NCBI RefSeq assembly: GCF_016735595.1
Contig: NZ_JAERRB010000002.1
Location: forward strand, 384,996 to 448,995
Direction of reading: 5' to 3'
DNA length: 64,000 bases
From: Chryseolinea lacunae
Lineage (GTDB): Bacteria > Bacteroidota > Bacteroidia > Cytophagales > Cyclobacteriaceae
Shown: positions 8,889 to 48,465 of the stretch, piece by piece
How positions within the stretch are numbered: position 1 is the stretch's first letter
Layout: every line of letters begins with the position of its first letter
Program-made: the position numbers and the translations under genes
The notes under the pieces: generated by a model
What the model was told of the DNA's origin: nothing
Database searches by the model: none
Seen by the model: only the letters and a program-made list of their open reading frames with translations

Positions 8889-8980
8889 ATATGCCTGAGG
8901 TTTCTTTGTCCATTTCCGGCGTTACATGAAGTCCTTCTGGGAATTTTATATAGCGCTATTGGGATTTATTAACATAGAGT

Positions 8981-21394: not shown

Positions 21395-21420
21395 GCATTT
21401 TATTCAAACCATATTAATTT

Positions 21421-28404: not shown

Positions 28405-28611
28405 TTGAGATTCCGATCCCATTGACCACTTTGTTTCAGGAGGGCGTGACCAGCTAAGTTACTTGAGGACTTAAACTTCGCCAAGGTTTCGAACCCCTTG
28501 ATTGCTAGGCTCTTTTTTGGTCAAATGGCTGTGGAATTGTGTGGTCACGTGATCTGAAAATTGATGGTCAGGGCAAAACGGAAAAAGATGGTCAGTCACT
28601 TCGGATTCTCC
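28405..28611. mobile_element. MITE-like repeat, copy 2
   Basis: Complete copy of about 207 bp from GGAG/TGAG-ATTCCGA to TCGGATTCTCC, beginning 29 bases after the FtsX permease stop. Internal TGACCA/TGGTCA boxes are as in copy 1. A frame through its right half plus following DNA (28539-28883) is an artefact of the repeat. Bases 28612-28879 hold nothing recognisable. Confidence 0.75.
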
Positions 28612-28879
28612 ACAAAGGAAAAACTGGAGGAAAGGGAAGGCCGCGGACGTTTACTCAGAAGTTGCCGAAAGGTACCACAGGCGTGAAAGTGAAGTTGGCA
28701 ATAAGCAGAGACACGACAGTAGAGGACCCCGAGCTTTCTATCAGAAATGGCATGGGACATATTGGTTTTAGAAATGTTGTTTCTGGTAGCCCCAAGACGT
28801 CAAAATATTTTTCAGATAACTTCATAAGTATCAGAATAAAAACAACTCATATTAAAATCAACGGAGGGAGATTGTTCAG

Positions 28880-29263: not shown

Positions 29264-29625
29264 TGGTCTGAGGGTGTTAGATACTTGAAATTCCAGGGCG
29301 GTCGTAAGGAGTTTATTTCGAATGGGCGAGCAAAAGAAAAATTCATGCGTTTGGGGATACGCTCTTTATCTGGAGGAAATTTTTGATAAGAGAAGCGACA
29401 GCCGTCAGATTTGGCTTAAGTAGATGAGGATGAAACAAATTCGTATCTCATTAGTGATACGTAGAATTGGAGCCCGCTAGCGATCGAGTATCGATATCCT
29501 TTGATATGGTAGAAATATAGGGAAAGCCGTGCACATTTACTGACGAGCGTAACTGCTTGTCTATTGGTCGCAGCAGGATCATGGGCATGATGTTTATGTT
29601 CGTTAATATTTTTTAAGAATAGTAT

Positions 29626-29830
29626 GGAGATACCGACCCCATTGACCACTTTGTTTCAGGAGCGCGTGACCAACTAAAGTTACCTGAGGACTTGAACTCG
29701 CCTAGCTTTTGAACCCCCTTGATTGCTAGACTCGTTTCTGGTCAAATGGTGGCGGAATTGGGTGGTCACGTGATCTGAAAATTGATGGTCAGGACAAAAC
29801 GGAAAACGATGGTCGGCCACTCGGATTCTC
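29626..29830. mobile_element. MITE-like repeat, copy 3
   Basis: About 205 bp, from GGAGATACCGA to TCGGATTCTC, with the same box arrangement as the other copies. Its right end touches the first base of the uvrA fragment at 29832, suggesting that the repeat inserted into, or helped to delete, that gene. Confidence 0.75.
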
Positions 29831-29831
29831 A

Positions 29832-29962
29832 GTTATCAACCTGACGGTGAAATTTCCGCTGGACATTATAACGGTGGTGACGGGCGTGAGCGGCTCGGGA
29901 AATCGACACTCATCAAAGAATCTTTGAATGTATTGCCGCGGAACTCATTCACTGAATCGTAA
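29832..29962 (+). pseudogene. uvrA fragment (excinuclease ABC subunit A family)
   Basis: About 40 codons read VINLTVKFPLDIITVVTGVSGSG, the segment around a UvrA Walker A motif. After one missing base the frame continues KSTLIKESL and then diverges to a stop at 29960. Only a UvrA-family ATPase has this combination of FPL...TVVTGVSGSGKSTL. The rest of the gene is absent on both sides, and the upstream boundary is MITE copy 3. It might come from a drug-resistance UvrA-like paralogue linked to the antibiotic cluster or simply be relic DNA. The stretch 29963-30366 holds no recognisable gene. Confidence 0.65.
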
Positions 29963-30366
29963 TCACTAATCATTTTTTTTAACTTTTTGTAAGTCGGCCA
30001 TTTTTTCTCACCGTTTGTGCGTGATTTTCTTGTGAGGTAAACTATCAATGAGTGTTTGCATTTTTGGTAACGGATTGTTTTACGTGGCGATTCTAGCCTC
30101 AACATTTCTTGCTCAGCATTTTACGATTATTTCTTTCTAGTAGACTTCTACTATGCTAAAAACGCTGATGTGAAAACCTAGATTGTTGTCAGATAATCAA
30201 TGCGCAACATGTCAAGGAAAGTTGGCGATTGCGGGGGTGATAAATTGATCGCGCGACTCAGACTATAGCATTTCTCCCGTGCAAATTCATGGAGAATAGT
30301 AAAGGCGATGGTCGGTAAGCAAGTGTATTTGGAACAGTCAACCATTTCTTAAAAAAAACAATAACT

Positions 30367-31053
30367 ATGCAAAAGAAAATTTATTTCATTGTCCAAGGCA
30401 AAGGCGGAGCGGGCAAGTCGCTGCTTGCTTTTATGCTTGCAGAAAAGTATCAAGACGCAGTGATTCTTGATCTCGATGACGCGATCCAGTCAACTAAACA
30501 ACAACTGGCCTATCGCAACCCTACGGTTGTTCCGTTTCTGGATCCAAAGACAAAGAGTATCAACCGCGGTACTTTCATGGAGCTTTTTCAAAGTATAGCG
30601 TTAGCAGGCCACCCGCTCTATATTGCGGATCTAGGCGGAAGTGTTTCGGAGCAGCTGCCCAAATTTTTCATCCTCAATAGCCTTCAGGGGACCTTGAGTT
30701 TGCTTCAGGCAAGCAATATTCATCTCCAACTCGTTTGTGTGGTCGGTGGTGGAAATATTTTTAAAGCTACCATGACGTATCTGGATGAGCTTGTTGAATC
30801 TACCAAGGGAGCCATTGAAATCGTTGTTGCTCACAATGGTATGTATCCCTGTACGCAAAGCCAGCAGGAGCAGTTGCAGCAATATGTCTTGGAGCATACG
30901 CTACCCTTGATACCCTTTGATCTGGCAGAGGATAAAAACGAAAGCGCGATGCGAAACATAGAGACGGTGTTGAAAGACGGCCAGGGACTAGCCAGTGTCA
31001 GTCCTTTTATATCGATCTATTTCATCGAATCAATTAAAAAACTAAATCTATAG
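30367..31053 (+). CDS. ParA/MinD-family ATPase of the mobilization module
   Basis: 228 residues with deviant Walker A GKGGAGKSLLAFMLAEK near the N-terminus, the strand-acid motif AVILDLDDA, and YIADLGGSVSEQLPKF as Walker A'/switch region. Such ParA-like proteins precede the mobilization genes of many Bacteroidota elements (TraA-like position) and may act in stabilisation or positioning of the relaxosome. It begins a tightly spaced plus-strand operon: the next genes follow after 3 and 1 bases. Confidence 0.8.
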   Translation: MQKKIYFIVQGKGGAGKSLLAFMLAEKYQDAVILDLDDAIQSTKQQLAYRNPTVVPFLDPKTKSINRGTFMELFQSIALAGHPLYIADLGGSVSEQLPKFFILNSLQGTLSLLQASNIHLQLVCVVGGGNIFKATMTYLDELVESTKGAIEIVVAHNGMYPCTQSQQEQLQQYVLEHTLPLIPFDLAEDKNESAMRNIETVLKDGQGLASVSPFISIYFIESIKKLNL

Positions 31054-31056
31054 GTC

Positions 31057-31578
31057 ATGGCCATGACTGATAAGGAACGCGTCCAACTAAGGGCATATTC
31101 CATTTCATTGCTAAGCCAGTATGGGTTCAGGTTTAGCGAAAATGACCCCGTGCTGCCAGCACTATATATTATTCATAAAGAGATGCAATCGAACATTGAA
31201 ACCAACCAAAAGATTGTGTCTCAAATCGACCAAGCTTCTTCCCGAATCAGCCCTAAGGTCTTTCATTTTAATTGTGAAGGAGAATCCTGGAAATTCCAGC
31301 TTGCTATCGCAGTCAAGTGGATGATTTGGACTGGACTAGGTATGGCATCCGTTAGCCTTGGAATTTGGTATTGGTCGCTTCGAGCTGACATTAACGAGGC
31401 GAGGAAAATCATCAACGCTCATGACCGTATTAGCCAGCTAGCGACACGGGCGAAAAAAGATAACCTGGGTAATCTCGTCATTGATTTTACCGAAGCCAAG
31501 GGTGATTCGGCAAAGCGTTTCTGGGAATATCGCCGGGTCGACAAAAGGACCATCCGGTTATTCATAGGAGGGGAGTAG
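31057..31578 (+). CDS. Hypothetical protein with one membrane helix, mobilization operon
   Basis: 173 residues, unrecognised. An N-terminal helical part (about 1-85) precedes a hydrophobic segment MIWTGLGMASVSLGIWYW that should cross the membrane, followed by a charged region of about 70 residues. It sits three bases after the ParA-like gene and one base before the next gene. An internal ATG at 31063 is an alternative start. Confidence 0.6.
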   Translation: MAMTDKERVQLRAYSISLLSQYGFRFSENDPVLPALYIIHKEMQSNIETNQKIVSQIDQASSRISPKVFHFNCEGESWKFQLAIAVKWMIWTGLGMASVSLGIWYWSLRADINEARKIINAHDRISQLATRAKKDNLGNLVIDFTEAKGDSAKRFWEYRRVDKRTIRLFIGGE

Positions 31579-31903: not shown

Positions 31904-32096
31904 ACGAGAGATCCAAAGATGTCTAATCAGCTTCAATCATATCCAACTATAGTGAAAGAAGAACACTGTAAAGTACAGCTAGCTTCAATAGACCTACGAG
32001 CTTGCCGTTACGGAGCAAGCCATGTTTCCGCTACGCTCCAACGGCTTGGAGAAGCTTTTTATAAATCAACCTGATCACTTCGTTCGGTTTTTATAG
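31904..32096. other. Candidate origin of transfer region (oriT)
   Basis: The 193-bp gap before the MobC gene holds an inverted repeat GCTTGC/GCAAGC around CGTTACGGA, and further short repeats with TACG and CAACGG, ending in a T-rich stretch before the mobC start. Relaxosome genes of this type usually have oriT directly upstream. A 51-codon frame (31919-32074) exists here but shows no protein-like features. Confidence 0.4.
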
Positions 32097-32456
32097 ATGA
32101 TGTCACGCCCAAAGGTAAACGATATAGACAAGCGTATCTTTCAGGTGAACATTCGCCTGACCGAAACGGAGCATGCCAAAGCTGTTGCCCACGCGCAAGC
32201 TAGCGGCATGACACCCGCGAACTGGATACGTCGGATTGTATTTACCGGCAAATTCCCACCTTTAAAGTTGTCTCCCGTAGAAGCGGCCCTGTATCGAGAG
32301 TTGAAAAGGATCGGCGTTAATCTTAATCAGATAACGCACAGAATCAATCTTAGGGAATTTCCAAAGGAATACCTCGCCCAGCAGGTTGAATTGAAGGAGG
32401 CATTGGATTACATATTAAAAGCATTGACCAGTGACGGGGAACCAGATCAAGGGTAG
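32097..32456 (+). CDS. MobC-like relaxosome accessory protein
   Basis: 119 residues. The N-terminal ribbon-helix-helix segment reads FQVNIRLTETEHAKAVAHAQ, followed by GMTPANWIRRIVFTGK and the conserved LKRIGVNLNQITHRIN block of Bacteroidota MobC/MobA proteins. It should bind oriT and help the relaxase nick. Two ATGs lie at 32097 and 32100. Its 3' end overlaps the relaxase start by 26 bases, so translation is likely coupled. Confidence 0.82.
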   Translation: MMSRPKVNDIDKRIFQVNIRLTETEHAKAVAHAQASGMTPANWIRRIVFTGKFPPLKLSPVEAALYRELKRIGVNLNQITHRINLREFPKEYLAQQVELKEALDYILKALTSDGEPDQG

Positions 32457-33507
32457 GGGATTCCGTGGTGCTTTGCGCTACAACCTGGAGAAACTGGAAA
32501 AAAACCTGGCCGAGGTGCTCGACCATTCCTTTTCCCGCGTCACTGAAAAGTCAATTATGAAAGAAATTCAGATGGTGAAGGTACTCCGGCCAAACCTTCA
32601 GAAATTTTTCTACCACACGTCCCTGAATTTTCCACCACATGAAAATCTTTCCAATGACACCATGAGACAGATTGCCAATGACTACCTGAAGGCCAATGGA
32701 TTCAGTCAGCATCAATTTATCATTTTCAGGCACTACGACGCGGATCACCCACATCTGCACATCCTGGTTAACCGTATTGGCTATGATGGAAAGGTACTAA
32801 GCGACAGCAATGACTTCGCGCGCAGCGAGAAAATACTCCGTGGTCTTGAAATAAAGTACAATCTCACCAACGTGGCTCCCAGCAAACAAGCTACAAAGCG
32901 CGCTGTCACCAAGGATGAATTAGAGATGATGAAGCGCACAGGAGGACCTTCCCTTAAAATACAGCTACAGGCAATGGTGAAAGGCGTCTTGGATGCGGAC
33001 TCCAACATGACAGTTTCGGAATTCATCCAGGCGCTAGAGAAGAAAGGAATAGCACCACAATTTAATATTGCCAGTACAGGGTATGTGAGCGGTGTATCGT
33101 ATTCCTACCAAGGAATGGTAATGACAGGTTCTAAGCTTGGGAATGAATTCAAGTGGACAACGCTAAAAGATAAAATAGACTACGAAAAGGAGCGGGATAG
33201 CCAAATCATTCTTAATGCAAATTCCCGATCGAAAACTGTCGCTACAAAGCGAGGTCACATGGATGGTCTTAAAAAATCACCGATTTCGAGTGAGAATTCA
33301 ACTAAGCCTCCTTTCAGGACCAATAGAAATTTGGACGCTAGTCCAAAGCCCAAAGACCTTCCTAACGCAACGAACCCAAGCGTAGCAGATTCGCTGGCCG
33401 GCATTATTGGTGGCCTAATCAGCCCTCATCTTGAGCATGACCAAGCACCAGAAGCATCGCTAAGGTTGACACGGAAGCGGAAACGTAGAAAAGGCTTCGG
33501 GCGGTAA
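32431..33507 (+). CDS. MobP/MobB-type relaxase (mobilization nuclease)
   Basis: 358 residues starting with GTG at 32431; the sequence MTGNQIKGRGFRGALRYNLEK matches the usual relaxase N-terminus, which supports this start within the mobC gene. The metal-binding three-His motif is HYDADHPHLHILVNR at about residue 100, and the catalytic Tyr is likely in FFYHTSLNF or a nearby segment. The C-terminal third is basic and low in complexity (RKRKRRKGFGR). It nicks oriT and pilots the DNA. No type IV secretion or coupling protein genes are visible in the window, so transfer would depend on a helper element. Confidence 0.88.
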   Translation: MTGNQIKGRGFRGALRYNLEKLEKNLAEVLDHSFSRVTEKSIMKEIQMVKVLRPNLQKFFYHTSLNFPPHENLSNDTMRQIANDYLKANGFSQHQFIIFRHYDADHPHLHILVNRIGYDGKVLSDSNDFARSEKILRGLEIKYNLTNVAPSKQATKRAVTKDELEMMKRTGGPSLKIQLQAMVKGVLDADSNMTVSEFIQALEKKGIAPQFNIASTGYVSGVSYSYQGMVMTGSKLGNEFKWTTLKDKIDYEKERDSQIILNANSRSKTVATKRGHMDGLKKSPISSENSTKPPFRTNRNLDASPKPKDLPNATNPSVADSLAGIIGGLISPHLEHDQAPEASLRLTRKRKRRKGFGR

Positions 33508-33728
33508 AATTTCACACTCGAAGATTTTATTGATTGGGTCCAAATCGTTGAAGAATTAATTCTGTCACAAAGATGCTTCGGGCAGCGAATGCGTCGAGCA
33601 GTCAAAAGCTTACGGCATAAAATTCAGGGGGCCTTCGGCCATGTGTCTTTTTCAAATTTATTCCGTTTCCTTATTGACAGCTCGGCTACCCTTCGCAACA
33701 GCAGTTCCATAATAAATTCTTAACGATT

Positions 33729-34199
33729 ATGGAAAACAACACCAATCAATCAAAACAATTCGAAGTGGCAGAAATTGAACTGTCCTACAAGTCTTCCGTC
33801 AAACCTTCTTCCCGGGCCAAGATCAGTAGCTCCAAAGACGCTGGCGCTCTACTGATGCAATCCTGGGACATGTCAAAAATCGAATTGGTTGAACAGTTTA
33901 AGATACTCTTCGTCAACCGGGCCAATCGCGTCCTGGGTATCTATGAACTCTCTACCGGTGGCATGAGCGCTACCGTCGTTGATCCCAAGCTGATCTTTGT
34001 TGCAGCCTTAAAAGTAGGTGCTTCTGGCATCATATTAAGCCACAACCATCCTTCTGGAAATCTTACGCCCAGTCAAGCGGACATTAGCTTTACCAAGCGA
34101 ATCAGCGAAGGCGGTAAGCTGTTGGAGATCCAACTGATGGACCACATCATAGTTACCAGCGAAAGCTATTATTCATTCGCAGACGAGGGGTTATTATAG
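33729..34199 (+). CDS. RadC-like JAB-domain protein
   Basis: 156 residues with the RadC/JAB1-MPN metal motif: GASGIILSHNHPSGNLTPSQADI, preceded by LFVNRANRVLGIYELSTGG. Proteins of this group are abundant on Bacteroidota mobile elements, where their role is unclear despite the old DNA repair name. The N-terminal helix-hairpin-helix of true RadC is absent. The gap 33508-33728 before it shows nothing recognisable. Confidence 0.85.
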   Translation: MENNTNQSKQFEVAEIELSYKSSVKPSSRAKISSSKDAGALLMQSWDMSKIELVEQFKILFVNRANRVLGIYELSTGGMSATVVDPKLIFVAALKVGASGIILSHNHPSGNLTPSQADISFTKRISEGGKLLEIQLMDHIIVTSESYYSFADEGLL

Positions 34200-34210
34200 C
34201 CCCTTATTTC

Positions 34211-34307
34211 CTCACTTTAAAAACGAATAAGTGAGCCGTTGTATATAAGAATTGGGATCTGGTGTCTGGAAAAACATTTTTGTCTTTGATTAAGTCCACG
34301 CCAATGG
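34211..34307. repeat. Structured non-coding block A, downstream of the Cas12-like gene
   Basis: It contains a hairpin CTCACTT/AAGTGAG (34211-34235), the block ACGAATAAGTG (34223-34233) and the block CCACGCCAATGG (34296-34307). Both blocks recur almost contiguously at 36440-36465 on the other side of the sigma/Cas12-like pair. On the minus strand this region follows the Cas12-like stop codon by 134-230 bases, where TnpB-type proteins often have their guide RNA. Confidence 0.45.
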
Positions 34308-34440
34308 TCTTCTATCATGACGCTCATCATGTTCCTCCGTGGCCCAGAATTCCGGACCTTACTTAGTGAGTGCTAATCTTGGCCTCACTTTACGGGTTTA
34401 CAAGCACCCTCTTTTTTTTTCGACGCTCAAGTCAAAAAAG

Positions 34441-35538
34441 TTATTCTGTTATGATCGTTATCCCTGCCCGCGCGGCTTTGTAGGCCAGTTTCTCTTTCAA
34501 CCCACCATAGCCCCAGTTCCGAAGAACAAAGGTATTGTTCTTCGCCTGTTCTTCCTTTTCCGTTTGGTTTACCAGGATAAGTGTTGCTGCGTTATGAGCG
34601 AGGCAGAGGTCAATCACCTTTTTGCTATAGGTGTGGAGCTTGGTGCGAACAAACTCTCTCTCGATGTCCTTGAATTTGGCAGTACCTTGGAACTTTCGCT
34701 TTTTACCTTTGCCGCCGCGACAAAATGATGCCGCACTCAAGGCGCGTTGTCGCGCAGCCTGGATGGCCATGCGCCTGTATAAAAACTCTTCCTTATTACC
34801 GACCTTGAATACGGCCTTTCCGATAGTTAGCACTACCGGATAGTCAAGGGACAGGGATGCTTCTGCAATTATTTCATCGGAAAGAACTGGCCGCTCCTTT
34901 TTCTGTTCAAACGTGGCAAGCAGGTATAGCTTCCGTTTTGCCAGCCGTAAGGAACTGCCGCAGAATTTAACCGTCCCCTCCAGCCATTGTTGCATTAGTC
35001 TGCGCTTGTCCACCTGGTCGTGACCCAGATAGGTTCGAAAGGGAATGGAGAATAGTTGAAAACTGTATTCGTTCCGCTCCTTGATATAGGTGAGCCGGCG
35101 TACGTTCTCTGCCAGAAACGGGATAGGAATATCGTGCTTATAATTTGAGATCGATTCTTCTCCGCGCTGATAAGCTCCCGCTTTCTGAGAATAGGTGCTG
35201 ACTAGTGTATGGTTCAACGCATTTAGAATATGCATTGGGATCAGCCCTTTAAATTGACTGGAAAGGAACCGGTAGGTGCTGTTCTGGCGCGAGGTTGTCA
35301 GCATCCCTTGAGGATCGGTCGTCCAGTCGGCAAGTTTGAGTTGGATGTCTTCCCTTAAATACACCATGTCTTTTAATTGATGCTGGATGAACTGGTGCGT
35401 GAAAAGGTAGTTAGCGCTTCGTTGACAGATTGCCTGCCAGCGGGACAAGGTCTTGTAAGCATCCTTGATGAAGTCTTTGTCAGGGCTATCTACCAGTATC
35501 TGGATCTTTCGCGTCGTGGTGATTGTAGTTTCTTTCAT
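34441..35538 (-). CDS. TnpB/Cas12-like RuvC-fold protein, probably nuclease-dead
   Basis: 365 residues. The N-terminal half is helical with R-x2-C-type spacing (LSRWQAICQRSANYLFTHQF), then a beta-rich part FSIPFRTYLGHDQVDKRRLM and a strand LAKRKLYLLATFEQKKE, as in the wedge/REC layout of TnpB and small Cas12. The C-terminal part looks RuvC-like: SLDYPVVLTIG in place of RuvC-I, YRRMAIQAARQRAL as bridge-like basic helix, and LILVNQTEKE at the RuvC-II position, where a catalytic Glu is expected but Asn/Gln occurs. The protein ends at YKAARAGITIITE, before the zinc ribbon and RuvC-III Asp. The gene starts 18 bases after the sigma-factor stop. Remote family assignment is from pattern reading only. 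Confidence 0.55.
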   Translation of the reverse strand: MKETTITTTRKIQILVDSPDKDFIKDAYKTLSRWQAICQRSANYLFTHQFIQHQLKDMVYLREDIQLKLADWTTDPQGMLTTSRQNSTYRFLSSQFKGLIPMHILNALNHTLVSTYSQKAGAYQRGEESISNYKHDIPIPFLAENVRRLTYIKERNEYSFQLFSIPFRTYLGHDQVDKRRLMQQWLEGTVKFCGSSLRLAKRKLYLLATFEQKKERPVLSDEIIAEASLSLDYPVVLTIGKAVFKVGNKEEFLYRRMAIQAARQRALSAASFCRGGKGKKRKFQGTAKFKDIEREFVRTKLHTYSKKVIDLCLAHNAATLILVNQTEKEEQAKNNTFVLRNWGYGGLKEKLAYKAARAGITIITE

Positions 35539-35556
35539 TGCGACAGGTAACGGGTA

Positions 35557-36324
35557 TTAAATCTCTTTTAAGATGGCATGTGCTTTTACATATTGCTGCT
35601 GGACATAGGGTAGAGGGAGTTTTAGAAGTTCGGAAATTTGCAGGAAGGTATAGTGAAGATTTAGCCGCATTGAATATATGTGACTCTGTTCAGTCGTTAG
35701 CCTATCATGATAGAATCGAATTTCTGTGGAAGTTCGTCTGTAGATTGATGAAGACGTTTTCGGGACTAATAGCGAGCGCAGGTATTCACAGGCGCTTTCA
35801 ATTTCCTTGTTCACTGTTTGAACAGGTAGCTTTAAGCGTTGAGAGATTTCTTTCGCGGTTAATCCCTCACAAAGATGCAGATCAAGTATCCGTCGTTGCC
35901 CGTGATTGGGAAGTGACGGGATAAGCAGGAGCACTTCATTTAGGAATTTACTCTTTGAGTCTACTCCATCTTGTTCAGGGAATGAATCAATAGCTTTTGT
36001 GTCAAACCAGTCAAGACTGACAAGGCGGCGGTAGAATTGTAGCTTTGAATTTCGATAATAGGCCATACATTCCCAACGCACAATTAGTTTTAAGAATCTT
36101 CTAATGTGGTCCATGCTGGTCATTCTCTCTCTGAATACCCACATCTTCAAAAAGGCTTCCTGAATAATGGAATTTACAATGAATTCGTCTTGGACGAGAC
36201 GAAGGCCATATCGTTGAATAGGCTTTGACAGTCTATTATATATTAACGTCAGCCCATGCTCAGAGTCAGAGGAAAAAAGTCTGAAAATTTGGTACTCGTC
36301 AGTTTTGATTTGGGCTATGTCCAT
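35557..36324 (-). CDS. ECF-type sigma factor with extra C-terminal helix-turn-helix
   Basis: 255 residues. Sigma region 2 is seen in LTLIYNRLSKPIQRYGLRLV and IIQEAFLKMWVFRERMTSMDHIRRFLKLIVRWECMAYYR. Region 4 is LPNHGQRRILDLHLCEGLTAKEISQRLKLPVQTVNKEIESACEYL. After this come about 60 more residues with a second helix-turn-helix-like pattern (FLQISELLKLPLPYVQQQYVKAHAIL). No anti-sigma gene is nearby. Instead the Cas12-like gene follows by 18 bases. The N-terminal ATG at 36324 is clear. Confidence 0.75.
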   Translation of the reverse strand: MDIAQIKTDEYQIFRLFSSDSEHGLTLIYNRLSKPIQRYGLRLVQDEFIVNSIIQEAFLKMWVFRERMTSMDHIRRFLKLIVRWECMAYYRNSKLQFYRRLVSLDWFDTKAIDSFPEQDGVDSKSKFLNEVLLLIPSLPNHGQRRILDLHLCEGLTAKEISQRLKLPVQTVNKEIESACEYLRSLLVPKTSSSIYRRTSTEIRFYHDRLTTEQSHIYSMRLNLHYTFLQISELLKLPLPYVQQQYVKAHAILKEI

Positions 36325-36390
36325 ACGCTCCTTGATAGTTTGGATTGAAAATCTGGAACGTCCCCTATCAGTAGTGGCCTACACAAAAAG

Positions 36391-36484
36391 TATGGCGTGG
36401 AACCCAACTTACTGTCCTGAGGTACTGGTATACCTGACTACGAATAAGTGGGCCCACGCCAATGGCGTGAGCATCTCACTTATT
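36391..36484. ncRNA. Structured block B upstream of the sigma gene, candidate guide RNA or target
   Basis: TGGCGTGG (36393-36400) pairs with CCACGCCA (36454-36461), extended inward by ACTTA/TAAGT and CCC/GGG. An alternative fold pairs AATAAGTG (36443-36450) with CACTTATT (36477-36484) and CACGCC with GGCGTG. The segment 36440-36465 repeats the two blocks of region A at 34223-34307. The 360-bp gap 36325-36684 contains no gene; this structured part and the XRE operator are all I see. Confidence 0.4.
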
Positions 36485-36624
36485 GCCTCGAAGTCTTGGA
36501 AATTACCAGTTTTCAGGACGAGACGCTAAGTGCGAATACCTCTAAAATCAATTGAAGAATTCGCTAAAATATTATTTAGAAAACAAAATCTACTTCATTG
36601 CGAGCAAATATAGCGATTTAGTTC

Positions 36625-37127: not shown

Positions 37128-38378
37128 TTAGTGCACCAGTTCTTCATTGATGAAATGGTAAATGAATTGTGCGCTTGTAAAAGATGAATAGTCCTGATAT
37201 TTGTCATTTTTCGTTGAATCACCAAAGTCTGAAACGGATTTTATCATAAGTCCTTTGACGGACTTGTCTTGGTTGTGTTCGCACGTGTAATAAAGACCAT
37301 AGCCTTCCATCTCAACTCCCAATAGTTTTCGTTGTAGCTGTTTTATTTCGTTGAGTTTGCTTTCACTTGATATTACATACGATCCAGATGCAATTGGGCC
37401 AAGATATGCCTTTAGCACATTTGTCGGCTTCGTATATTTACACTCGTTTTGTATTTTGGATAGGATGTCATTTCGCCTTAACAGATTGTGGATTTTTGCT
37501 TTTAGGTTAGCGGCTAGCTGAATTGGACGCGTGTCGGGCTCGAATTTGGTTTCCTTTATTCCCGTTGACTCGTCTTCAATATCTTTCATTTTCCCACTGC
37601 CATAGTCCCAAGACTGCTCTGCGATTAGAATGTCTCCGTAATTTAATTCGCGCTCTTTTAAGCCAGCGCAAATTCCACCCATTATGATTGTATGAGGACG
37701 GAACTGATGGATGATTTTTGCAGTAAGCACTGCGGTTGCGGTCATTCCCATTTGCTCACAGCAGGCGGCGATAATTCGAATCTTTTTACCCGAGTTTTCT
37801 ATGATGCAGTTAAAATATGTAGTCGGGTCATTATCTAAATTGAATTTAGTCCAGCTTACAGGCCAATCCAATATTTTGTCAAATTCGGGAGTACTTATTG
37901 CTGTGATTACTGCAATTTCACATTGGCGAATGATCGATGTGCCTTCGATGTATCGTTTTCTGATACTAACCAAATGATATACAATGTTCTTAAGCTTATC
38001 TTGCCAATTAATTTCCATGGCATTATAGGCAATTAAATGCCAGACATATTTGCTGAACTCACTCTCAAATTGCTGTTTAAGATCGCCGAAGGCAGTTAGT
38101 CCGATGATGTAGAGTGGGGGCTTTAGCGATGGATTTGTTTCCAGGTCCTTTAAAAAAGTTATTCCTTTTTCAGGTGTAGGTGTATCGCCTGTGTCTAAAG
38201 GTAATACTAGGTCTAAGATTACAAGATCAAAGGATTCATTTATGAGAAGACGTTTTGCTGCCTTGATAGTCGGGACACACGTAATATCGGTAGGCAGAAT
38301 CATAGCATCATCAGTCAAGAGTTGTTTAACTTGGTCAGATTTGTGACTTGCGTCGTCCACAATAAGAATTTTGATCAT
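37128..38378 (-). CDS. dtcC: Detocs-like DtcC: receiver domain fused to nucleoside phosphorylase-type effector
   Basis: 416 residues. Residues 1-130 are a response-regulator receiver (ILIVDDASHKSD, phospho-Asp in LVILDLVLPLD, IIGLTAFGD). Residues 150-416 are a purine nucleoside phosphorylase/MTA-nucleosidase fold: IAVITAISTPEFD, TIIMGGICAGLKERELNYGDILIA, LLGVEMEGYGLYY and the active-site MIKSVSDFGD. In characterised Detocs systems such a fusion is the effector, degrading ATP in infected cells after phosphorylation. The gene overlaps dtcB by four bases at its start and ends convergent to the XRE gene. Confidence 0.85.
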   Translation of the reverse strand: MIKILIVDDASHKSDQVKQLLTDDAMILPTDITCVPTIKAAKRLLINESFDLVILDLVLPLDTGDTPTPEKGITFLKDLETNPSLKPPLYIIGLTAFGDLKQQFESEFSKYVWHLIAYNAMEINWQDKLKNIVYHLVSIRKRYIEGTSIIRQCEIAVITAISTPEFDKILDWPVSWTKFNLDNDPTTYFNCIIENSGKKIRIIAACCEQMGMTATAVLTAKIIHQFRPHTIIMGGICAGLKERELNYGDILIAEQSWDYGSGKMKDIEDESTGIKETKFEPDTRPIQLAANLKAKIHNLLRRNDILSKIQNECKYTKPTNVLKAYLGPIASGSYVISSESKLNEIKQLQRKLLGVEMEGYGLYYTCEHNQDKSVKGLMIKSVSDFGDSTKNDKYQDYSSFTSAQFIYHFINEELVH

Positions 38379-38818
38379 ATTACTTCATGAATTTTGGTTA
38401 ACAAGTTTTCTTTCCAATTTGTATTTCCAGGGGAGAAATAAACGAAGCCTTTGTAGTTTTCACTGAATTCCCGATGGAGTTGTTTGTCTAGCGCCGAAAG
38501 CTTTGTTCCATCAACAAAGCTTTCATACATTGTGACCACAATTACCTTTGTTTTGATATCGCGTAGATACATCTCGTTAAGGAGCAATTTTCCAGCCAGC
38601 GGCATCGGATCCCCACCAGGTTCTCCTGGTTTTATATCATAGGTGGGCATACTAATGTCTAGCAATACCAAATCATAAATATTATTGAGCAATAATTCCT
38701 TTAGGCCACTATGATAAGATTTCTTGGTCTCAATTTTTATTGATAAAAATTGGTCATTAAGGAAGGTCTGCAGCTGTTCTATTTTATAATTGTTGTCTTC
38801 GATAAGTAGGAGATTCAT
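38375..38818 (-). CDS. dtcB: Detocs-like DtcB: stand-alone receiver protein
   Basis: 147 residues, a single receiver domain without output: LLLIEDNNYKIEQL, phospho-Asp in DLVLLDISMPTYD, Thr in VIVVTMYESF. In Detocs the stand-alone receiver is thought to act as a phosphate sink that limits accidental effector activation. It overlaps dtcA by four bases (ATGA) and dtcC likewise, so the three genes form one translationally coupled operon. Confidence 0.85.
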   Translation of the reverse strand: MNLLLIEDNNYKIEQLQTFLNDQFLSIKIETKKSYHSGLKELLLNNIYDLVLLDISMPTYDIKPGEPGGDPMPLAGKLLLNEMYLRDIKTKVIVVTMYESFVDGTKLSALDKQLHREFSENYKGFVYFSPGNTNWKENLLTKIHEVI

Positions 38819-41800
38819 GCTGTTAAATTGTCAAGTGATATTTGTAATCTCACTGTGAAAACTTTGTCTTCACCATGTGACCATTCACAGGAGTTGGTTT
38901 CATTCTTAAGGTCCGACTTGATGATTTTATGGGCTTTTGGAAATCCAGACTTGCCTTCTGTTGATAACTTCCTTGGATTAGCCTGAAGATTTGAAGGTAG
39001 ATTTTCTTTTACAGTTTTCTGACTATCGGAATGTGCATTTCTAATCGATAGTATCAATATATTCTCGTGTTGTTTGCCAACTATATCAACATCAATTCGG
39101 TCGATGGATTGATCGGAATGCTTGAGCGCGTTGTCGAGAAATATCCGGAATAAATCAGCGAAGTGCGTATAAAATTCGCCTTTAATATTGATGTCAGCGA
39201 CGTTGAGATTAGTTATGATAAGCTCTCTTTTAGGATAGCTATGGCTTATATTTTCTAAAACAATATGTATTAGTTTGTCGAGTTTAAAGTCTGACGTTTG
39301 ACTGCCACTTCGATTGAACCAACTTGCAATTCGGTTTAATGTAATGTCTGTTTCTGTCAAGCAAGTATTAATATTTGTGAAAATTGGTGAGCTACCATGT
39401 AATGCTGTCTGAAGATCGGATGTCAATGTCTCAATAGCTTGATTGAATTTTGCTTTGACCTCGTTTTGAATTTTATTTCGTATCTTGTAGAGATTAGTAT
39501 CGGTTCGTTGCCAAAGTATTTCTAGTGTTCGCCTTACAAACTCTGAAAAATCTCTTGACTCCCTTGCAGCGACTGCATGAAGAGAAAGATTGGTGTCATC
39601 AAAGTAATAGTCAAACCACCCTTCTTCGTGTTCATCTTCAGTTCGTATTTGCAGGCTGTCCTTGAGAAGTCCTAAAATGATGCTATCTATTTGCTCTGAA
39701 AATTTGGCGAGCGAGCCCTGCATAGACTTACTATTCTCTTCAGTTAGTTGTTGGTATTTCTTCGCCCAATGTGCGATTGGTAGATAGTCGCCAGTGTGGC
39801 TGTCGCGCTGGGCGATTAAGTTAGACTTTTCAAAGATAGGTCTTAATTCTCCAAGTAAGACGCCGTGACGTATCCGCGTGCTTAAGTATGCGGAAATTCC
39901 AAATTTACTAAACAGAAATTTTCTCGTAATTACGTCGAATATGTCAGCAAATGCATCTCGGAGTGGATCAGAGGAATATTGGTCATTCGTAAGAGCGTCA
40001 ACGACGTCATCAATTGATGCCAGTCGAACATTGTTCCGTCGGCGATCGAAAATCAATAAAGCGTCTTTTTTTTGGGTTTTGTATATGTTGGCGATGGTCC
40101 TATATCTGTTAAACAGTCCTTCGAATTCTTTTAGTTCAAAGTTGACCAAACCTGATTCATTTACATAAATTTTACTTTCGTCCAGTTGTTGTAATCCTTC
40201 TTGTATAATTAATGCGTCGGACAATTCCTTAATTTCATTTTTGTAATGTTGTTCATTTTCTTTGTCTAGAAATAGCAGGACCTGGCAGACGTTAATACGC
40301 TCGGAGTACCCATCCTTGGATCCATCAATATGGATGGAGTGCTTGAATGTGTCTGTTGAGCAGGTGTACCGCAAGAAAAGAACCCACTTCATTGTATTGA
40401 CGGAGAAAACATCTGCCTTCAATTGAGATGGCCTATTGACATTGAATGTGTTTAGGAGTTTTTCGTAGGCGATGTGAACCTCGTTTTCATCGGATTTTGT
40501 AAACGTATAAAACAAAGGCAGGTCAATCGATGAGACAACATTTCTGAATTTCTTTTCTCGAATGCGAGTGTGAATTGACGATAGATCGATTCTTGAAATC
40601 AAGAAATTGCTTTTAAGGTAAGTATCAACGTATAAAGAGATTGCTTTATTGAAACTAGATAATTTCACGTACGACATGAATAGATATTCAATAGCTAACT
40701 CGTGGATAGGTATGATGGAGTTGGCATCATCAATAACTTCAAGCCATAAGTTCACGGCCTGATCATATATCCCTTTTGCATGGAGCAATTTTCCTAATTC
40801 TACTTTTTTTATTATTTCAGGAATGTTGAGGCCTTCTAAAAGTCGTTCATACTGAATATCAAAAGATGTCAGTTTGAATTTTACCGTAATTGAGTGTGGG
40901 TAGTTTTGGAGTACTTTTTTAAGATATGTGAGTTGAACGGCAGGGTCGCCAAAGAAGCCAACTATTTCTGGGTTGTTTTGCGAAAGGGACATAAAGTCAA
41001 AATGGCTCCATTTTGAATTTGATTTTGTTTCGTCATTGATGAATTTGTGGATACCGTCAGCGATCGTGAAACTATGAAGATTTTTGAGGGACCTTTGAAG
41101 ATTGATTAGGGCTTCATTTGGGTCGACGCTTCGTGCTAGTAACTGGTAAATTGTTTCTAATATTGAGTTTTGATGGCAAGAAGTTGTTGATGGTAAGCTG
41201 AACGATGTATCGGAATACAAGAAGCATTTAACATACAAGACATAATATTCAATGATAGATGGTGCTTGGGTTAATTTAGTAGTTAGACGTTCAAGGCATT
41301 CATTGTAAAGGCCAGAAGTAAACAAATCTATCAGGGAAAGATCGACGTCGGTTTCGGACTTTGGTGTGAATTTTTTAGACAATAGGGCATTCACGGAAAC
41401 CAAGGATGGGTCTAAGAATTTATTTGATAGATATTTTAGACGATCAGCGACAAAGAACTTGGTAGCTGGATCGATGTTTTCGGCCGACAACGACATTTTA
41501 AGAAGTTGAACCAAGAGTACATACCGATCGATAACGGAATTGTGACTGTCAAAAGTCAACACGTCTTTTAGGTTGATGTAGTTGTCGTACGTAAACCTAT
41601 TTAGCCGTAAATAGTATAGTTCTCTATGTCCTTCCGCGTCATTACCTTTTATTTTTTGCAAAGCAATGTTTAAATCCGAATCAAATCTTGATACGGCTAG
41701 GTTTCGCTCTGAACGTGTACTTAAGTAGTGGGCAAGAGATGCTGTAAAGACGCCAGTTGCTGTTTTGTTTGTCTCGCTTAGAAAAGTCTTATTATGCTCG

Positions 41801-42270
41801 GGCGAGTCCTTAAATTCATGTAACAACATCCGGTTTTCGAGCGACCAAAGTGAGTGACAGACTTCATTTTCTATTTTGGTTAGGTATTTCTCTGCTTCTT
41901 CGTAGTCGCCGATTAAAAACGCGTTTTCGAAGATTTTACGATATTCTATGAAGAGCGAAATGTGCCATTTATGCCTTCTGATACACAACGTTGTCCAATT
42001 GATAGAGTGAATTAATGTTGCTGAGTAAAATGGCCAAAATCGCTTTTCTACCTTACCAAGATCTTGATAAGATTTTGGTAATGGATTTCCGTAAAATATT
42101 CGAGAATGAAATCGATCAATAGTTAATGAATTTCGATCGACCACTTCGCACAGCTGCGGAAATGTTAGTTGATTTTGCAACTCAGAAATGGAATTTTTAT
42201 CGGTGGATCGAAATCCAAAAAACTTTTCAGGTGAACGACCGCGCTTAAACGCGGCAAATGGTGTATTCAA
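38815..42270 (-). CDS. dtcA: Detocs-like DtcA: large sensor with histidine-kinase ATPase domain
   Basis: 1151 residues. Most of the protein is a helical repeat array (TPR-like, for example GDYEEAEKYLTKIENE, KGIYDQAVNLWLEVIDD) that could be the sensor. The C-terminal 170 residues form a HATPase_c domain: N box FADLFRIFLDNALKHS, acidic strand ENILILSIRNAH, and G-box-like TEGKSGFPKAHKII. The organisation matches the kinase of Detocs. There is no membrane segment. The start codon is TTG at 42270; the following residues look genuine, and the next ATG lies about 145 codons in, so a non-ATG start is likely. Confidence 0.82.
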   Translation of the reverse strand: MNTPFAAFKRGRSPEKFFGFRSTDKNSISELQNQLTFPQLCEVVDRNSLTIDRFHSRIFYGNPLPKSYQDLGKVEKRFWPFYSATLIHSINWTTLCIRRHKWHISLFIEYRKIFENAFLIGDYEEAEKYLTKIENEVCHSLWSLENRMLLHEFKDSPEHNKTFLSETNKTATGVFTASLAHYLSTRSERNLAVSRFDSDLNIALQKIKGNDAEGHRELYYLRLNRFTYDNYINLKDVLTFDSHNSVIDRYVLLVQLLKMSLSAENIDPATKFFVADRLKYLSNKFLDPSLVSVNALLSKKFTPKSETDVDLSLIDLFTSGLYNECLERLTTKLTQAPSIIEYYVLYVKCFLYSDTSFSLPSTTSCHQNSILETIYQLLARSVDPNEALINLQRSLKNLHSFTIADGIHKFINDETKSNSKWSHFDFMSLSQNNPEIVGFFGDPAVQLTYLKKVLQNYPHSITVKFKLTSFDIQYERLLEGLNIPEIIKKVELGKLLHAKGIYDQAVNLWLEVIDDANSIIPIHELAIEYLFMSYVKLSSFNKAISLYVDTYLKSNFLISRIDLSSIHTRIREKKFRNVVSSIDLPLFYTFTKSDENEVHIAYEKLLNTFNVNRPSQLKADVFSVNTMKWVLFLRYTCSTDTFKHSIHIDGSKDGYSERINVCQVLLFLDKENEQHYKNEIKELSDALIIQEGLQQLDESKIYVNESGLVNFELKEFEGLFNRYRTIANIYKTQKKDALLIFDRRRNNVRLASIDDVVDALTNDQYSSDPLRDAFADIFDVITRKFLFSKFGISAYLSTRIRHGVLLGELRPIFEKSNLIAQRDSHTGDYLPIAHWAKKYQQLTEENSKSMQGSLAKFSEQIDSIILGLLKDSLQIRTEDEHEEGWFDYYFDDTNLSLHAVAARESRDFSEFVRRTLEILWQRTDTNLYKIRNKIQNEVKAKFNQAIETLTSDLQTALHGSSPIFTNINTCLTETDITLNRIASWFNRSGSQTSDFKLDKLIHIVLENISHSYPKRELIITNLNVADINIKGEFYTHFADLFRIFLDNALKHSDQSIDRIDVDIVGKQHENILILSIRNAHSDSQKTVKENLPSNLQANPRKLSTEGKSGFPKAHKIIKSDLKNETNSCEWSHGEDKVFTVRLQISLDNLTA

Positions 42271-42854: not shown

Positions 42855-45800
42855 ATGAACTTTAACTGGCATTCAATTATTTCGCTTAACAATAGCCAAC
42901 AAGAAGGCTTTGAAGAGCTTGTATGTCAAATCGCCAGCCAGCAAAATATCCAAGGTGCTGCGGGCTTTCGAAGGGTAGGAAAGCCGGACGGTGGTAAGGA
43001 ATGCTACTGGGAATTAACAACGGGCGAGTTCATCGCCTGGCAAGCAAAATTTTTCACGAATAGCCCAAGTCCCGGACAATGGAAACAAATCGAGAAATCC
43101 GTTACGGAATGCATTAGAAATCACGAAACGATTAAACGGATTATTGTCACTCTACCATTTGATTTACCCGATGTTAAAGTTGCGGGCGCAAAGTCTGCGC
43201 TAGAAAAATGGAAGGAAAAGTCAGCTAAGTGGAAGGCATTTGCAAAAGCGAGAAAACAAAAGGTGGACTTTGTGTATTGGGGCAGCACGGAACTTCTTTC
43301 TTTTCTTGCGGCAAATGGCAATGAGGGACTGAAACAGTTTTTCTTCAATAGCAAGGAGTACAGCGATGAATGGTTTGATACAAAAAATCGAGAAAGCCAA
43401 ACAGCTTTAGGAAGTCGTTACACAAAGGAATTTTCTATAGATCTACCGATCGCTGGCGTCTTTTCAGCGTTGGCACGGGATGCCACCTTTCAATCGAAGG
43501 TCTATGACGAGTATGAAGCCTATCTCAAAAGATACCGTGATGTGCAGGTCAATGATAGTAAGGAAGAGGTTACGACGCAGTGGAGACAACTTGAGACCAC
43601 TAACCACGAATTTAGAGTCTTCTTTGAATCGATTCCTTGGACTTCGAACGAACCCATTCCTTTTGATGCAATTCAGAAATTTTTAGAGAAACTACTCACA
43701 ATTTCTAAAGCTTTGCTGAGACTATTCTACGTGCTACAGGCGGCGGAAACTAAGGACGATAAGGCTGGCCATGAATATTACGATCGCCCTTACGCAAGTG
43801 AGCTAACAACGCTGCGGCAATTGATTTCAGGAATCGAGAAATTTCAATACTACTTTGAAGGGCCGTTACTTGCCCTTGCTAACAACCCTTTTTTATTAGT
43901 GAATGGTGACGCGGGTACAGGTAAGTCACATCTACTAGCGGACGTTGTTAATAGCAGAAAAGAGCATGGCCTCATAAGCTTGCACCTGCTCGGTGAGAAT
44001 TTTTCATCTAAGGACTTGCCATGGACACAGATTTTGCAAAACCATGTTCGGAAAAGTACAATCGACGAGTTTACTTTCCTTGGGGCACTTAATGCAAAAG
44101 GCCAGGCGAAACAATCTAGAATCATCATTTTTATCGACGCAATTAATGAAGGCGAAGGACGCGTTGTTTGGCCAAATCGACTTAGCCCATTTATCGAATC
44201 CATAAAGGAGTATAGCTGGATCGGTTTGGTACTTTCTGTAAGGACCTCATTTGTTCCGTTAATTGCATCAAGAGAAGACCTAGATGATCACATTATCACG
44301 CGAGTTGAGCACCACGGTTTTAAAGGACTTGAGCACCAAGCAGCGGCAACGTTCTTTGATCACTATTCGATTGAGTTGCCTGATACACCAATATTAAACC
44401 CTGAATTTCAAAATCCCTTATTCCTAAAGTTGTTTTGTGAGTCACTCAAAAAAAGAGGGTTAAGAAAAATTCCGGAGGGATACGAGGGACTTACTAGCAT
44501 TTTCCAAGGATTCTTAGAAAGCGTTGACAAAAGGCTCGCACAACCCTCGGCACTATTCTATGACGAACAAAAAAAACTTGTGATTAAGGCCGTAAAAGGT
44601 GTTGTTGGAAAATTGGCAGACAAAAAGGAAGACTACCTTGACTATGACCAGGCTAATAGTCTTGTTGATTCCATTTTCGACGGTCAGTGCGCCCACCCGG
44701 AGCCATATTTGCGTAGATTAATTTCTGAGGGAGTCTTTAATGAAGATTTGCGTTGGAATGGCGAACCTAGCTACAAAGCTGTTATCTCTTTCTCTTATCA
44801 ACGGTTCCAAGATCACTTGATTGTTGAAAACATCCTTGAAAAGGAACTTGGCCAAGGGGATCCAAAAATGAGTTTTCAAAAAGGTACGCTGAGGGAGATT
44901 CTTCAGAATGAGGAAAACGCTTACTTCAATATGAATTTGTTAGAAGCTTTATCTGTGCAATTGCCCGAACGAGTTGGGAAGGAATTGTATGAAGTTGCCC
45001 CGCACGCTAAGCATTTTCCACCTGTCGCAGACGCGTTCATCAACGCTCTTCTCTGGAGGAAGAGCACAAGTTTTACAGACGCTTCGAAGGATTTCGTTGC
45101 CCAAGTCATCTTTAAGAAGAAAAAATTGCTCCATGCTTTTTTAAACGTCTCAATTTCTCTTTCAGCCAGGCCCACATATTTCTTTAATGCGGACTCTATT
45201 CATAATATGCTCATGGGCCTCACGCTCCCAAAACGCGACAAGTTTTGGACAACGTTTATCCACGATGAATTCGGCAACGGCGTTAGAAGCAGTTCCATCA
45301 CGACCTTGATTCGTTGGGCGTGGACAACAGACGATAAATCTCACTTGAGCGAATCCTCGATGAGGTTATCTCTTACAATGATTGCTTGGCTTCTTACGAG
45401 TTCTAACCGCCGCCTTCGAGACTCAGCCACCAAGGCTCTTGTATGTCTTTTACAGCAGCGACTAAATCTTGCAGTTTACTTAATTGAGCAATTTAACGAA
45501 GTAAACGACCCATATGTAAAAGAGCGCATATTTGCATCCGTGTATGGTGCTGTTGTGCGCTCAAATTCCGATGCCCATTTACTTGAAATTGCGAATACCG
45601 TCCAGCAACTAATATTCAGCGGCGCCGAAGTTTACCCTCACATACTCGCGCGGGACTATGCAAGGGGAGTCGTCGAATTTGCTGCCTTTATCGGTATTGC
45701 CCTTCCCTTTAATATTGCCACGGTGCGTCCACCGTATAAGAGTGCGCCTCTACCAGAGAAGCTTCCAACAAAAGCAGAGATTGAGGCAGCGTACAGGCCG

Positions 45801-47312: not shown

Positions 47313-48465
47313 TGTCGATCGGATCCTGCACCAGTGTGCAGTAGTTCTTTGGCTTAGCGGAGCTACAATATTTATCATCGGTATTATCTAAATAAGTTCG
47401 TAATTAAAGTTTACAGCTCGGTGCGGTATTCAATATTTTATCGGGACTGAGGCTGTGATTTAATTTATCCGCCCATCGGGTATCTGGCCATTGGAATCCT
47501 GTCTTGTCGAGTTTGCCTCGTAGCTCCGCTGATACCAAGTCGGCATCTCGACATTAAATTTTGATCTGATATTCTTCGCAGGTAGGGAACTAGGTTTGGC
47601 ACCATCCGGAACATGAACCTAAAATGCACATCGTTACGCTTCAATGTTTTAGAAACGACAGAATTCTGACTCACCAGTTAACTCACTTTATAAGGTTCCA
47701 TGTAAGTACTTGTCCTAAATACTTACTTTTGCAAAGGAGCGTGCGTTGATGGCGGATCGGACCGAGGGAAAGAGGGAGTTGTTGGACAAATTCCAATTTG
47801 ATGCAGCACAATGACTTGGTTATATTATTTAAAAGTTGGTGCACCGATTTTTCACTTGCTCCGAGCAGCAGACTTTTAGGTGCTTCATGAACAGCTATAG
47901 GTGAAGATTTTGACCTCTTGGCCCTTCATTCCGCCAGGCACTTCGGAATTTCCAATCAGGTGCGGGAGCAATGTCAGCCAATATCGCTAATATATGTAAT
48001 GGTGAATTCCGTCGGAGTGACTTGTTATAGCTCAATGGGAATATGAACTTGCGATCAAATGGAGTGGCAAGTGAGCTATTACGAAAATAACTGGAACCAT
48101 TACAAGGGCACATTGACACCTGAACCCACAAAGATCACCTGGCGAGATGGTTTTCAATCGATCTAAGGGATTTCAATAAACAAAAATCACTAACAGCATC
48201 CGAAAAAACTATCAGGTTAAATTGCAAGGCGATTTCATATTATTTCATGGAACTTGGTGCCGGGGTGGCAAGTGTGACTTGGCGGCCATGTCTTGGCCCT
48301 GCTTGCTGGATGGATCGGAATCAGTATATTTCGACACCTGGCATCACGTTAATTGCCTTCCAAACTCATTCTATAACACTGATAGGTACAAGGCATAACG
48401 AGCTTAAAAAATGCAATTCAAGTGAAGAAATAAAGTGTCAGTTAGAACTACACTCTAAAACAGCA
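47313..48465. other. Long gene-poor interval between Avs-like and SIR2 genes
   Basis: About 1150 bases with short frames only. A 35-codon frame near 48058 (MEWQVSYYENNWNHYKG) has a protein-like look but is too short to judge. The frame upstream of the SIR2 start (48247-48465) is open but not family-like. No tRNA, repeat or clear terminator was found; it may be the remains of a decayed gene. Confidence 0.35.

What the first reader, a model, noticed from the sequence alone, without database searches (positions are those of the whole stretch)
34441..36324. Sigma factor and nuclease-dead-looking Cas12/TnpB-like gene in one operon
The ECF-type sigma gene (35557-36324) and the Cas12/TnpB-like gene are 18 bases apart on the same strand. 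The RuvC-like part has Asn/Gln where the RuvC-II Glu should be and ends before RuvC-III and the zinc ribbon. Nuclease-dead Cas12f-like proteins that recruit ECF sigma factors for RNA-guided transcription have, as I recall, been reported in Bacteroidota (not checked). This pair has the features expected of such a system, on a mobile element.
Basis: partly seen in the sequence, partly recalled or inferred. Interest (0 to 1): 0.88.

Follow-up and report, generated by a model that had tools for sequence, protein, structure and literature searches.

The report
RNA-guided sigma factor on mobile element
A dead CRISPR-like protein and a sigma factor form a known kind of gene switch steered by a guide RNA; the guide RNA found here points at the switch's own control region and at a nutrient-uptake operon elsewhere in the genome.

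Summary
The 365-aa protein (34441-35538, -) is a nuclease-dead Cas12f, about 46% identical to the solved dCas12f 9n9c; the adjacent sigma gene matches RpoE of 9n9q. The pair is a new member of the known dCas12f-sigmaE kind. Added: (1) its guide RNA (34219-34415, -), guide GGCTCACTTATTCGT. (2) Its targets: GGCYCACTTATTCGT (up to 1 mismatch) occurs five times in the 7.9-Mb genome: in two gRNA copies and three copies of a 130-nt element, 'U'. Two U lie upstream of the two sigma-dcas12f operons, one upstream of a thioredoxin-like/SusC/SusD operon on another contig. All three targets follow a G. (3) U covaries strongly (98.2% of cells paired; 38-48% when slid). In 22 genomes, chosen because a dcas12f locus carried U, 65 U were found: 31 before sigma genes, 20 before SusC, 14 neither; 32 of 65 fit a same-genome guide. 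(4) 37 of 80 homologous loci have mobilisation or integrase genes nearby. Transcription activation is inferred. Whether U is already in print could not be checked.

The parts
34441..35538 (-). dCas12f, 365 aa, nuclease-dead Cas12f homologue
   Evidence: 9n9c E 8.6e-108; RuvC residues lost; Foldseek top hits 9n9m, 9n9c
35557..36324 (-). sigmaE (ECF-type sigma factor, 255 aa) paired with dCas12f
   Evidence: 9n9q chain C 'RpoE' E 9.3e-29, residues 13-253; Pfam/NCBIfam
34219..34415 (-). guide RNA (element D): conserved scaffold start, long variable stem, ATACAAC (34238-34244), guide, T-run; ends are inferred
   Evidence: model R1, built without this locus, 55.7 bits at 34348-34415; fold of the longer stretch
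34223..34237 (-). guide GGCTCACTTATTCGT
   Evidence: follows ATACAAC; pattern found only in gRNA and U copies
36395..36524 (-). element U, covarying structured element upstream of sigma; similarity to the C5 copy runs to 36571
   Evidence: model R2 123.6 bits (R2 was built with this copy); similarity to C5 and C24; covariation
36440..36454 (-). target of the guide inside U (GGCCCACTTATTCGT), preceded by G at 36455
   Evidence: 15 of 15 pairs including one rU:dG wobble; 0 of 39 control stretches as good
36391..36412 (-). conserved tail GTAAGTTGGGTTCCACGCCATA; the transcript start is predicted near its first bases
   Evidence: identical in the three own-genome copies; 42 nt from target start here, 42-51 nt in 43 of 44 parsed of 65; the transcription-start distance is recalled, not from a call
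32097..33507 (+). MobB-like ORF and MobA-type relaxase (mobilisation module)
   Evidence: PF03432 6.2e-35 for 32431-33507; the MobB label is my reading
33729..34199 (+). RadC-like JAB protein, between the relaxase and the gRNA
   Evidence: PF04002 5.3e-40; the stretch 32000-36537 is 92.9% identical to contig C24

Best explanation
The locus encodes an RNA-guided transcription activator of the dCas12f-sigmaE kind, carried on a mobilisable element. Shown by sequence: a nuclease-dead Cas12f, its paired sigma factor, a gRNA just downstream with guide GGCTCACTTATTCGT, and G-preceded targets in U elements 131 bp upstream of the sigma gene (both element copies) and upstream of a thioredoxin-like/SusC/SusD operon on contig C5. 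Inferred: dCas12f with the gRNA opens an R-loop at U, the attached sigma factor brings RNA polymerase, and transcription starts about 45 bp downstream. The system thus switches on itself (positive feedback) and a SusCD outer-membrane uptake operon borne on a related element.
For: Full-length homology of both proteins to solved partners; L062 is identical to the solved dCas12f over the 361 residues compared. Fold match. Sigma upstream in 78 of 80 loci. gRNA scaffold in 79 of 80 loci (17 of them gave the model), the 80th (L073) ending inside the gene. The guide/target 15-mer occurs 5 times in the own genome, all explained. Among 129 guides, 17 match at 12 or more of 15 upstream of sigma; the 15 that lie in U are all preceded by G, the two outside U are not. 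SusC/D downstream on the same strand at 20 of 36 U places without dCas12f, none on the opposite strand, against 2 of 80 dCas12f loci. One array guide (GGCGTGTCATCCCAC) fits a deviating U before SusC (L201) at 14 of 15 in the same genome, best control 12.
Against: No transcription data. The U model sees U in only 26 of 80 loci. The F. taeanensis guide next to the solved dCas12f does not fit its own U (10.5 of 15) or the U before its SusC gene (10.0), and 33 of 65 U have no guide at 12 or more of 15 among those I extracted. In one search the best of four control stretches reached 12 or more in 10 of 65. In one search, of the 15 fits in U, L090 (1 of 48) and L106 (2 of 47) had control stretches as good. 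In the window the pairing is 15 nt with one wobble. Guide boundaries were set by a motif, not by RNA data.
Confidence: 0.83

Rival explanations
1. The guide pairs with U RNA rather than U DNA: U is a structured leader transcript, and the dCas12f-gRNA-sigma complex or the gRNA alone acts on it as an antisense regulator.
For: U has strong compensatory base changes, which DNA targeting alone does not require.
Against: Targets are preceded by G in 31 of 32 good matches, as expected of DNA recognition with the recalled 5'-G TAM; the solved relatives include a DNA partial R-loop complex (title).
Confidence: 0.1
2. dCas12f binding at U represses (as TldR does) and the sigma factor acts separately at its own promoters.
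For: Nuclease-dead TnpB-like proteins that repress are known (TldR; abstract and passages of PMC13418256).
Against: Sigma linkage in 78 of 80 loci and a PDB entry holding both proteins; the target lies 131 bp upstream of sigma.
Confidence: 0.06
3. A decayed Cas12f/TnpB fragment beside an unrelated sigma gene.
For: Catalytic residues and C-terminus lost.
Against: Full-length open frames, 96% identical protein copy on C24, conserved gRNA and gene order across many Bacteroidota.
Confidence: 0.01

Closest known systems
dCas12f-sigmaE RNA-guided transcription system (PDB 9n9c, 9n9m, 9n9o, 9n9q; dCas12f identical to locus L062, Allomuricauda/Flagellimonas taeanensis, over the 361 residues compared)
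   Same: Both proteins homologous over nearly their full length; same gene order; gRNA of the same scaffold family downstream; G-preceded target.
   Different: About 46% identical dCas12f; long extended gRNA stem; guide set about 5 nt further into the U hairpin than the common GCGTGGGCTC... guides; borne on a mobilisation module with a second copy in the genome. That the published system activates transcription is recalled, not read.
TldR (TnpB-like nuclease-dead repressor)
   Same: Nuclease-dead, RNA-guided transcription factor.
   Different: Derived from TnpB and represses (PMC13418256, abstract and passages); no sigma partner (recalled).
CRISPR-Cas12f nuclease
   Same: Fold and ancestry.
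   Different: Catalytic residues lost, ends before RuvC-III and zinc ribbon; gRNA units with a full scaffold rather than a CRISPR repeat array.

Membership tests
dCas12f-sigmaE system | Cas12f-type protein homologous over its length to the solved dCas12f | tested here: met
   9n9c E 8.6e-108, residues 3-363 of 365; Foldseek 9n9m 8.5e-38
dCas12f-sigmaE system | RuvC active site inactivated | tested here: met
   RuvC-I Asp is Ser, RuvC-II Glu is Val, C-terminal part missing; alignment with two relatives that keep the motifs, L005 and L006
dCas12f-sigmaE system | Adjacent sigmaE homologous to RpoE of 9n9q | tested here: met
   E 9.3e-29, residues 13-253 against 5-251
dCas12f-sigmaE system | Adjacent gRNA of the family | tested here: met
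   R1 55.7 bits, E 5.5e-17 over 85 sources; R1 was built without this locus. That D is the gRNA of the solved complex is inferred; the PDB RNA sequence was not seen
dCas12f-sigmaE system | Target with 5'-G TAM upstream of a gene | tested here: met
   Three own-genome targets preceded by G; the TAM itself is recalled from a preprint that is not held
dCas12f-sigmaE system | RNA-guided recruitment of RNA polymerase and transcription | not testable with these tools
   needs experiment
TldR | TnpB-derived nuclease-dead repressor | tested here: not met
   Closest fold and sequence are dCas12f, TnpB far lower (8h1j E 4.9e-11); repression not tested
CRISPR-Cas12f nuclease | Intact RuvC catalytic residues | tested here: not met
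FecI-type ECF sigma with FecR anti-sigma | Adjacent anti-sigma factor | tested here: inconclusive
   The neighbours are dCas12f and, divergently, an HTH protein; no targeted anti-sigma search was made

The most novel reading that the evidence does not exclude
Element U is an undescribed control module, widespread in Bacteroidota: a covarying hairpin structure that holds the dCas12f target in one arm, with a conserved tail at the likely start of the guided transcript. It marks a whole regulon (the sigma-dcas12f operon itself, SusCD operons and other genes), travels with mobile elements and perhaps adds RNA-level feedback, so that one mobile element's guide RNA controls a nutrient operon on another.
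Probability: 0.35. Interest if true: 0.78.

Novelty: new member of a known kind. Interest (0 to 1): 0.62.

Why it matters
RNA-guided activation of transcription by a natural sigma factor is, as I recall, a recent discovery, and its natural wiring is an open question. Here the guide, its targets and the regulated genes can be read from one genome, giving a directly testable circuit: self-activation plus control of a SusCD uptake operon. The U model offers a way to list regulons: in 22 genomes chosen for carrying U it found 36 further places without dCas12f in the stretch, 20 of them before SusC/D.

Tried and rejected
First I took U for the gRNA and the divergent bases after its T-run for the guide; the three such guides had no other match in the genome at up to 3 mismatches, and U's invariant 22-mer occurs only in the three U copies. 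The gRNA lies downstream of dcas12f. Two earlier guesses for the window guide (GGAGGAACATGATGAGCG; GGCGTGGACTTAATCAAA) had, in window, L020, L021 and L022, no match below 4 mismatches except themselves and their C24 copies; they were not searched genome-wide.

An alternative helix between U's target arm and its conserved tail (terminator-like) is not supported: cognate and non-cognate pairings are equal (5.91 against 5.92; 13804 of 20000 permutations reach the observed value) in 34 parsed of 68 elements.

Plasmids and phages gave no match to the dCas12f protein; in viral contigs 122 stretches matched a pattern but none encoded a relative. A first genome-contig scan with the single protein gave no relative; the second, allowed because of that, used an alignment and found 151, of which 80 were kept. 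In the order of the window's genome, 6 of 194 genomes searched match at 0.001; only the own genome and G139 hold full-length relatives, the rest are distant (27-37% identity). Rfam gave no match to D or U in the ten stretches searched. Literature searches for the dCas12f-sigma work and for SusC/structured-RNA reports did not return it (listings; one recalled preprint DOI is not held); recalled points are marked as such.

Rows dropped before counts: of the 137 D matches I left out L023 (the same locus as L057) and a weak upstream match in L051; of the remaining 135 guides, 6 fell out (no sigma ORF, under 150 bases upstream, or no motif). One search parsed 17 of 29 U (14 distinct); 12 were not parsed. 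One search was given 23 of the 26 U-bearing loci.

Full report
OBSERVATION. Both ORFs exist as described, minus strand, 18 bases apart. The 365-aa ORF has no Pfam match and sub-cutoff NCBIfam matches to guided_TnpB and Cas12f2, but phmmer against PDB sequences gives 9n9c 'Nuclease-deactivated Cas12f' over residues 3-363 at 8.6e-108. The sigma ORF gives one PDB match at the 0.001 cut, 9n9q chain C 'RpoE' (9.3e-29), over residues 13-253, so its C-terminal extension is shared too. One search lists 9n9q among the entries with the same dCas12f sequence, so both proteins occur in one solved entry. The dCas12f of L062 (Allomuricauda taeanensis) is identical to the 9n9c stretch over the 361 residues compared; the window's is 46% identical.

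FOLD AND ACTIVE SITE. A model from 33 aligned sequences (mean pLDDT 78.9, pTM 0.54) has as first Foldseek hits 9n9m 'dCas12f-gRNA-DNA complex (partial R-Loop)' 8.5e-38 and 9n9c 'dCas12f-gRNA complex' 1.3e-36, both released 2025-12-24. In an alignment of 83 dCas12f ORFs (80 loci, window, C24 copy, and L023, which repeats L057) with three Cas12f relatives, two of which (L005, L006) keep the motifs, the RuvC-I Asp is Ser in 73 of 83 (Asp in 1), the RuvC-II Glu is kept in 2 of 83 (Val in the window), and the column just beyond the dCas12f end is a gap in all 83, so the part with RuvC-III and zinc ribbon is missing.

CONSERVATION. A genome-contig scan found 151 relatives; the best 80 were kept (L030-L109), with titles that name Bacteroidota or genera I know as such. 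A sigma ORF lies upstream on the same strand in 78 of 80, within 110 bases in 73 and at most 750; in L095 and L099 the contig begins shortly before dcas12f. In the order of the window's genome only 2 of 194 genomes searched (the own genome and G139) hold full-length relatives. The own genome has a second copy (contig C24, 96% protein identity); the stretch 32000-36537, from before the MobB-like ORF through relaxase, RadC, gRNA, dCas12f and sigma to beyond U, is 92.9% identical between C12 and C24.

GUIDE RNA. Downstream of dcas12f lies a conserved element D (GAGG[G/C]TGCTTGTACA[G/C]CC...GGTGAGG...CACTCACTAA, a variable stem, ATACAAC, guide). A covariance model built from 17 of the loci, without the window's, finds it in 79 of 80; 22 loci have two or more units, up to ten; the 80th (L073) ends inside the gene. 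In the window it scores 55.7 bits (34348-34415); the stem is unusually long and closes at CTTATATACAAC, giving the guide GGCTCACTTATTCGT followed by a T-run. In the own genome D was found only beside the two dcas12f copies (150 of 1026 first-look candidates scored). The RNA of the solved complexes was not seen, so that D is their gRNA is inferred from place, conservation and targets.

TARGETS AND ELEMENT U. A 130-nt element, U, lies upstream of sigma (window 36395-36524). It was found three times in the own genome (150 of 1611 candidates scored): before both sigma genes and on contig C5, upstream of a thioredoxin-domain (TlpA-like)/SusC/SusD operon without dCas12f beside it. The C5 stretch also holds a relaxase gene and a ParA-like gene, and the latter region is 89% identical to window 29625-31150. 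GGCYCACTTATTCGT with up to one mismatch occurs exactly five times in 7.9 Mb: two guides and three U elements, all at zero mismatches (control, the pattern read backwards: two matches). Guide and U target pair over 15 of 15 positions, one as rU:dG, after a G; none of 39 (window) or 74 (C24) control stretches did as well.

GENERALITY. Over 129 guides (75 of the 80 loci plus window and C24), 17 score 12 or more of 15 in the up to 500 bases before sigma. Fifteen of these lie in U and all 15 are preceded by G; the two outside U (L085, L054) are not. For 13 of the 15 no control stretch was as good; L090 had 1 of 48 and L106 2 of 47. The model saw U in 26 of 80 loci, so most loci lack a U that it can see. 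I then searched 22 genomes, chosen because one of their dcas12f loci carries U (23 of the 26 loci given, one genome not held), and found 65 U in 21; that they have U before sigma is therefore partly by choice, the other places are not. By my count from the listing, with L202 (FecI-like sigma, FecR-like, SusC) counted as SusC, 31 are followed by a sigma ORF (28 within 471 nt), 20 by SusC (15 within 1 kb, the rest at 1.7-2.6 kb) and 14 by neither. Of the 31, 29 have dCas12f behind the sigma; the other two (L189, L205) are cut by the end of the stretch. Of 36 U places without dCas12f in the stretch, 20 have SusC/D downstream on the same strand and none on the opposite strand, against SusC/D in 2 of 80 dCas12f loci. 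With same-genome guides, 32 of 65 U reach 12 or more of 15 (18 of 31 before sigma, 7 of 20 before SusC, 7 of 14 others), at positions 73-77 of the extracted stretch in 31 and 81 in one, 31 of 32 preceded by G; the best of four control stretches reaches 12 in 10 of 65. In Salegentibacter sp. 24 an array guide GGCGTGTCATCCCAC (L090) fits the deviating U before a SusC gene, GGCGTGTCATCCGAC (L201), which shared consensus alone would not give. Against: in F. taeanensis, source of the solved dCas12f, the guide does not fit its U elements (10.5 and 10.0), and 33 of 65 U have no such guide.

STRUCTURE OF U. In 68 aligned U (67 distinct) 98.2% of cells form standard pairs (shuffled 86.1%, slid partners 38-48%), 19 of 30 pairs show changes on both sides, and the covariation score is 0.398 against 0.157 (0 of 500 shuffles); the alignment is fitted to the model, and related sequences can exceed shuffles, both of which favour it. 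A separate test on 14 distinct parsed elements of 29 gives cognate outer stems of 8.2 bp against 4.2 non-cognate, and inner stems 7.0 against 4.4 (0 of 20000 permutations each). So U is a folded RNA or a cruciform, with the target in a hairpin arm. A conserved tail starts 42-51 nt (most often 46) after the target start in 43 of 44 parsed of 65. A transcription start about 46 bp downstream is what I recall of the published system (not from a call), so the tail would be the 5' end of the guided transcript. Why U is folded is unexplained. Pairing between target arm and tail shows no covariation.

MOBILE CONTEXT. Relaxase, MobC-like or coupling-protein genes lie within about 6 kb in 22 of 80 loci (19 within 7.2 kb) and a tyrosine integrase in 22; 37 have either. 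Of 32 U places without dCas12f (7.2 kb or less), 1 has a mobilisation gene and 1 an integrase. The integrase counts are not size-matched, so this control is rough.

MECHANISM. Shown: genes, gRNA candidate, targets, element conservation. Inferred: R-loop at U, sigma-dependent recruitment of polymerase, start about 45 bp downstream, positive self-control and activation of the SusCD operon. Recalled only: the 5'-G TAM, promoter-independent start and RNA-guided transcription of the published systems (Sternberg and Chang groups). No paper on them was returned or read here; the PDB titles and names are what the tools show.

VERDICT. New member of a known kind, with a readable natural circuit. Element U and the cross-element wiring may be new, but that could not be checked against the primary papers.

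Noticed in passing
window 14989-24146: Lanthipeptide-like cluster: LanC-like, LanB-type dehydratase, carbamoyltransferase and a C39-peptidase ABC transporter.
   Followed up: no
window 37128-42270: Three adjacent minus-strand genes: nucleoside phosphorylase domain fused to a response-regulator domain, a response-regulator-like protein, and a 1151-aa protein with a weak GHKL ATPase match; perhaps a signalling or defence module.
   Followed up: no
window 8978-9180, 28418-28615, 29637-29829, 50521-50717: A dispersed repeat of about 200 bases, 83-89% identical to copies on contigs C24 and C5; nature unknown.
   Followed up: no
window 42855-47312 and 48247-50166: A 1485-aa ORF without Pfam match at 1e-5, followed by a SIR2/TPR protein.
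   Followed up: no
L035 5295-7081, L036 7107-8597, L032 7103-7739: Arrays of 10, 8 and 6 gRNA units with differing guides downstream of one dcas12f, so one system may address many sites.
   Followed up: partly
L004 (421-aa ORF): A Cas12f relative in another genome of the order (G055) that has lost the RuvC-I Asp, keeps the RuvC-II Glu and ends early: possibly a separate dead lineage.
   Followed up: no
L203, L204, L213: U elements overlapping the start of a short ORF that looks like a response-regulator receiver (my reading of the sequence, no search), not SusC.
   Followed up: no
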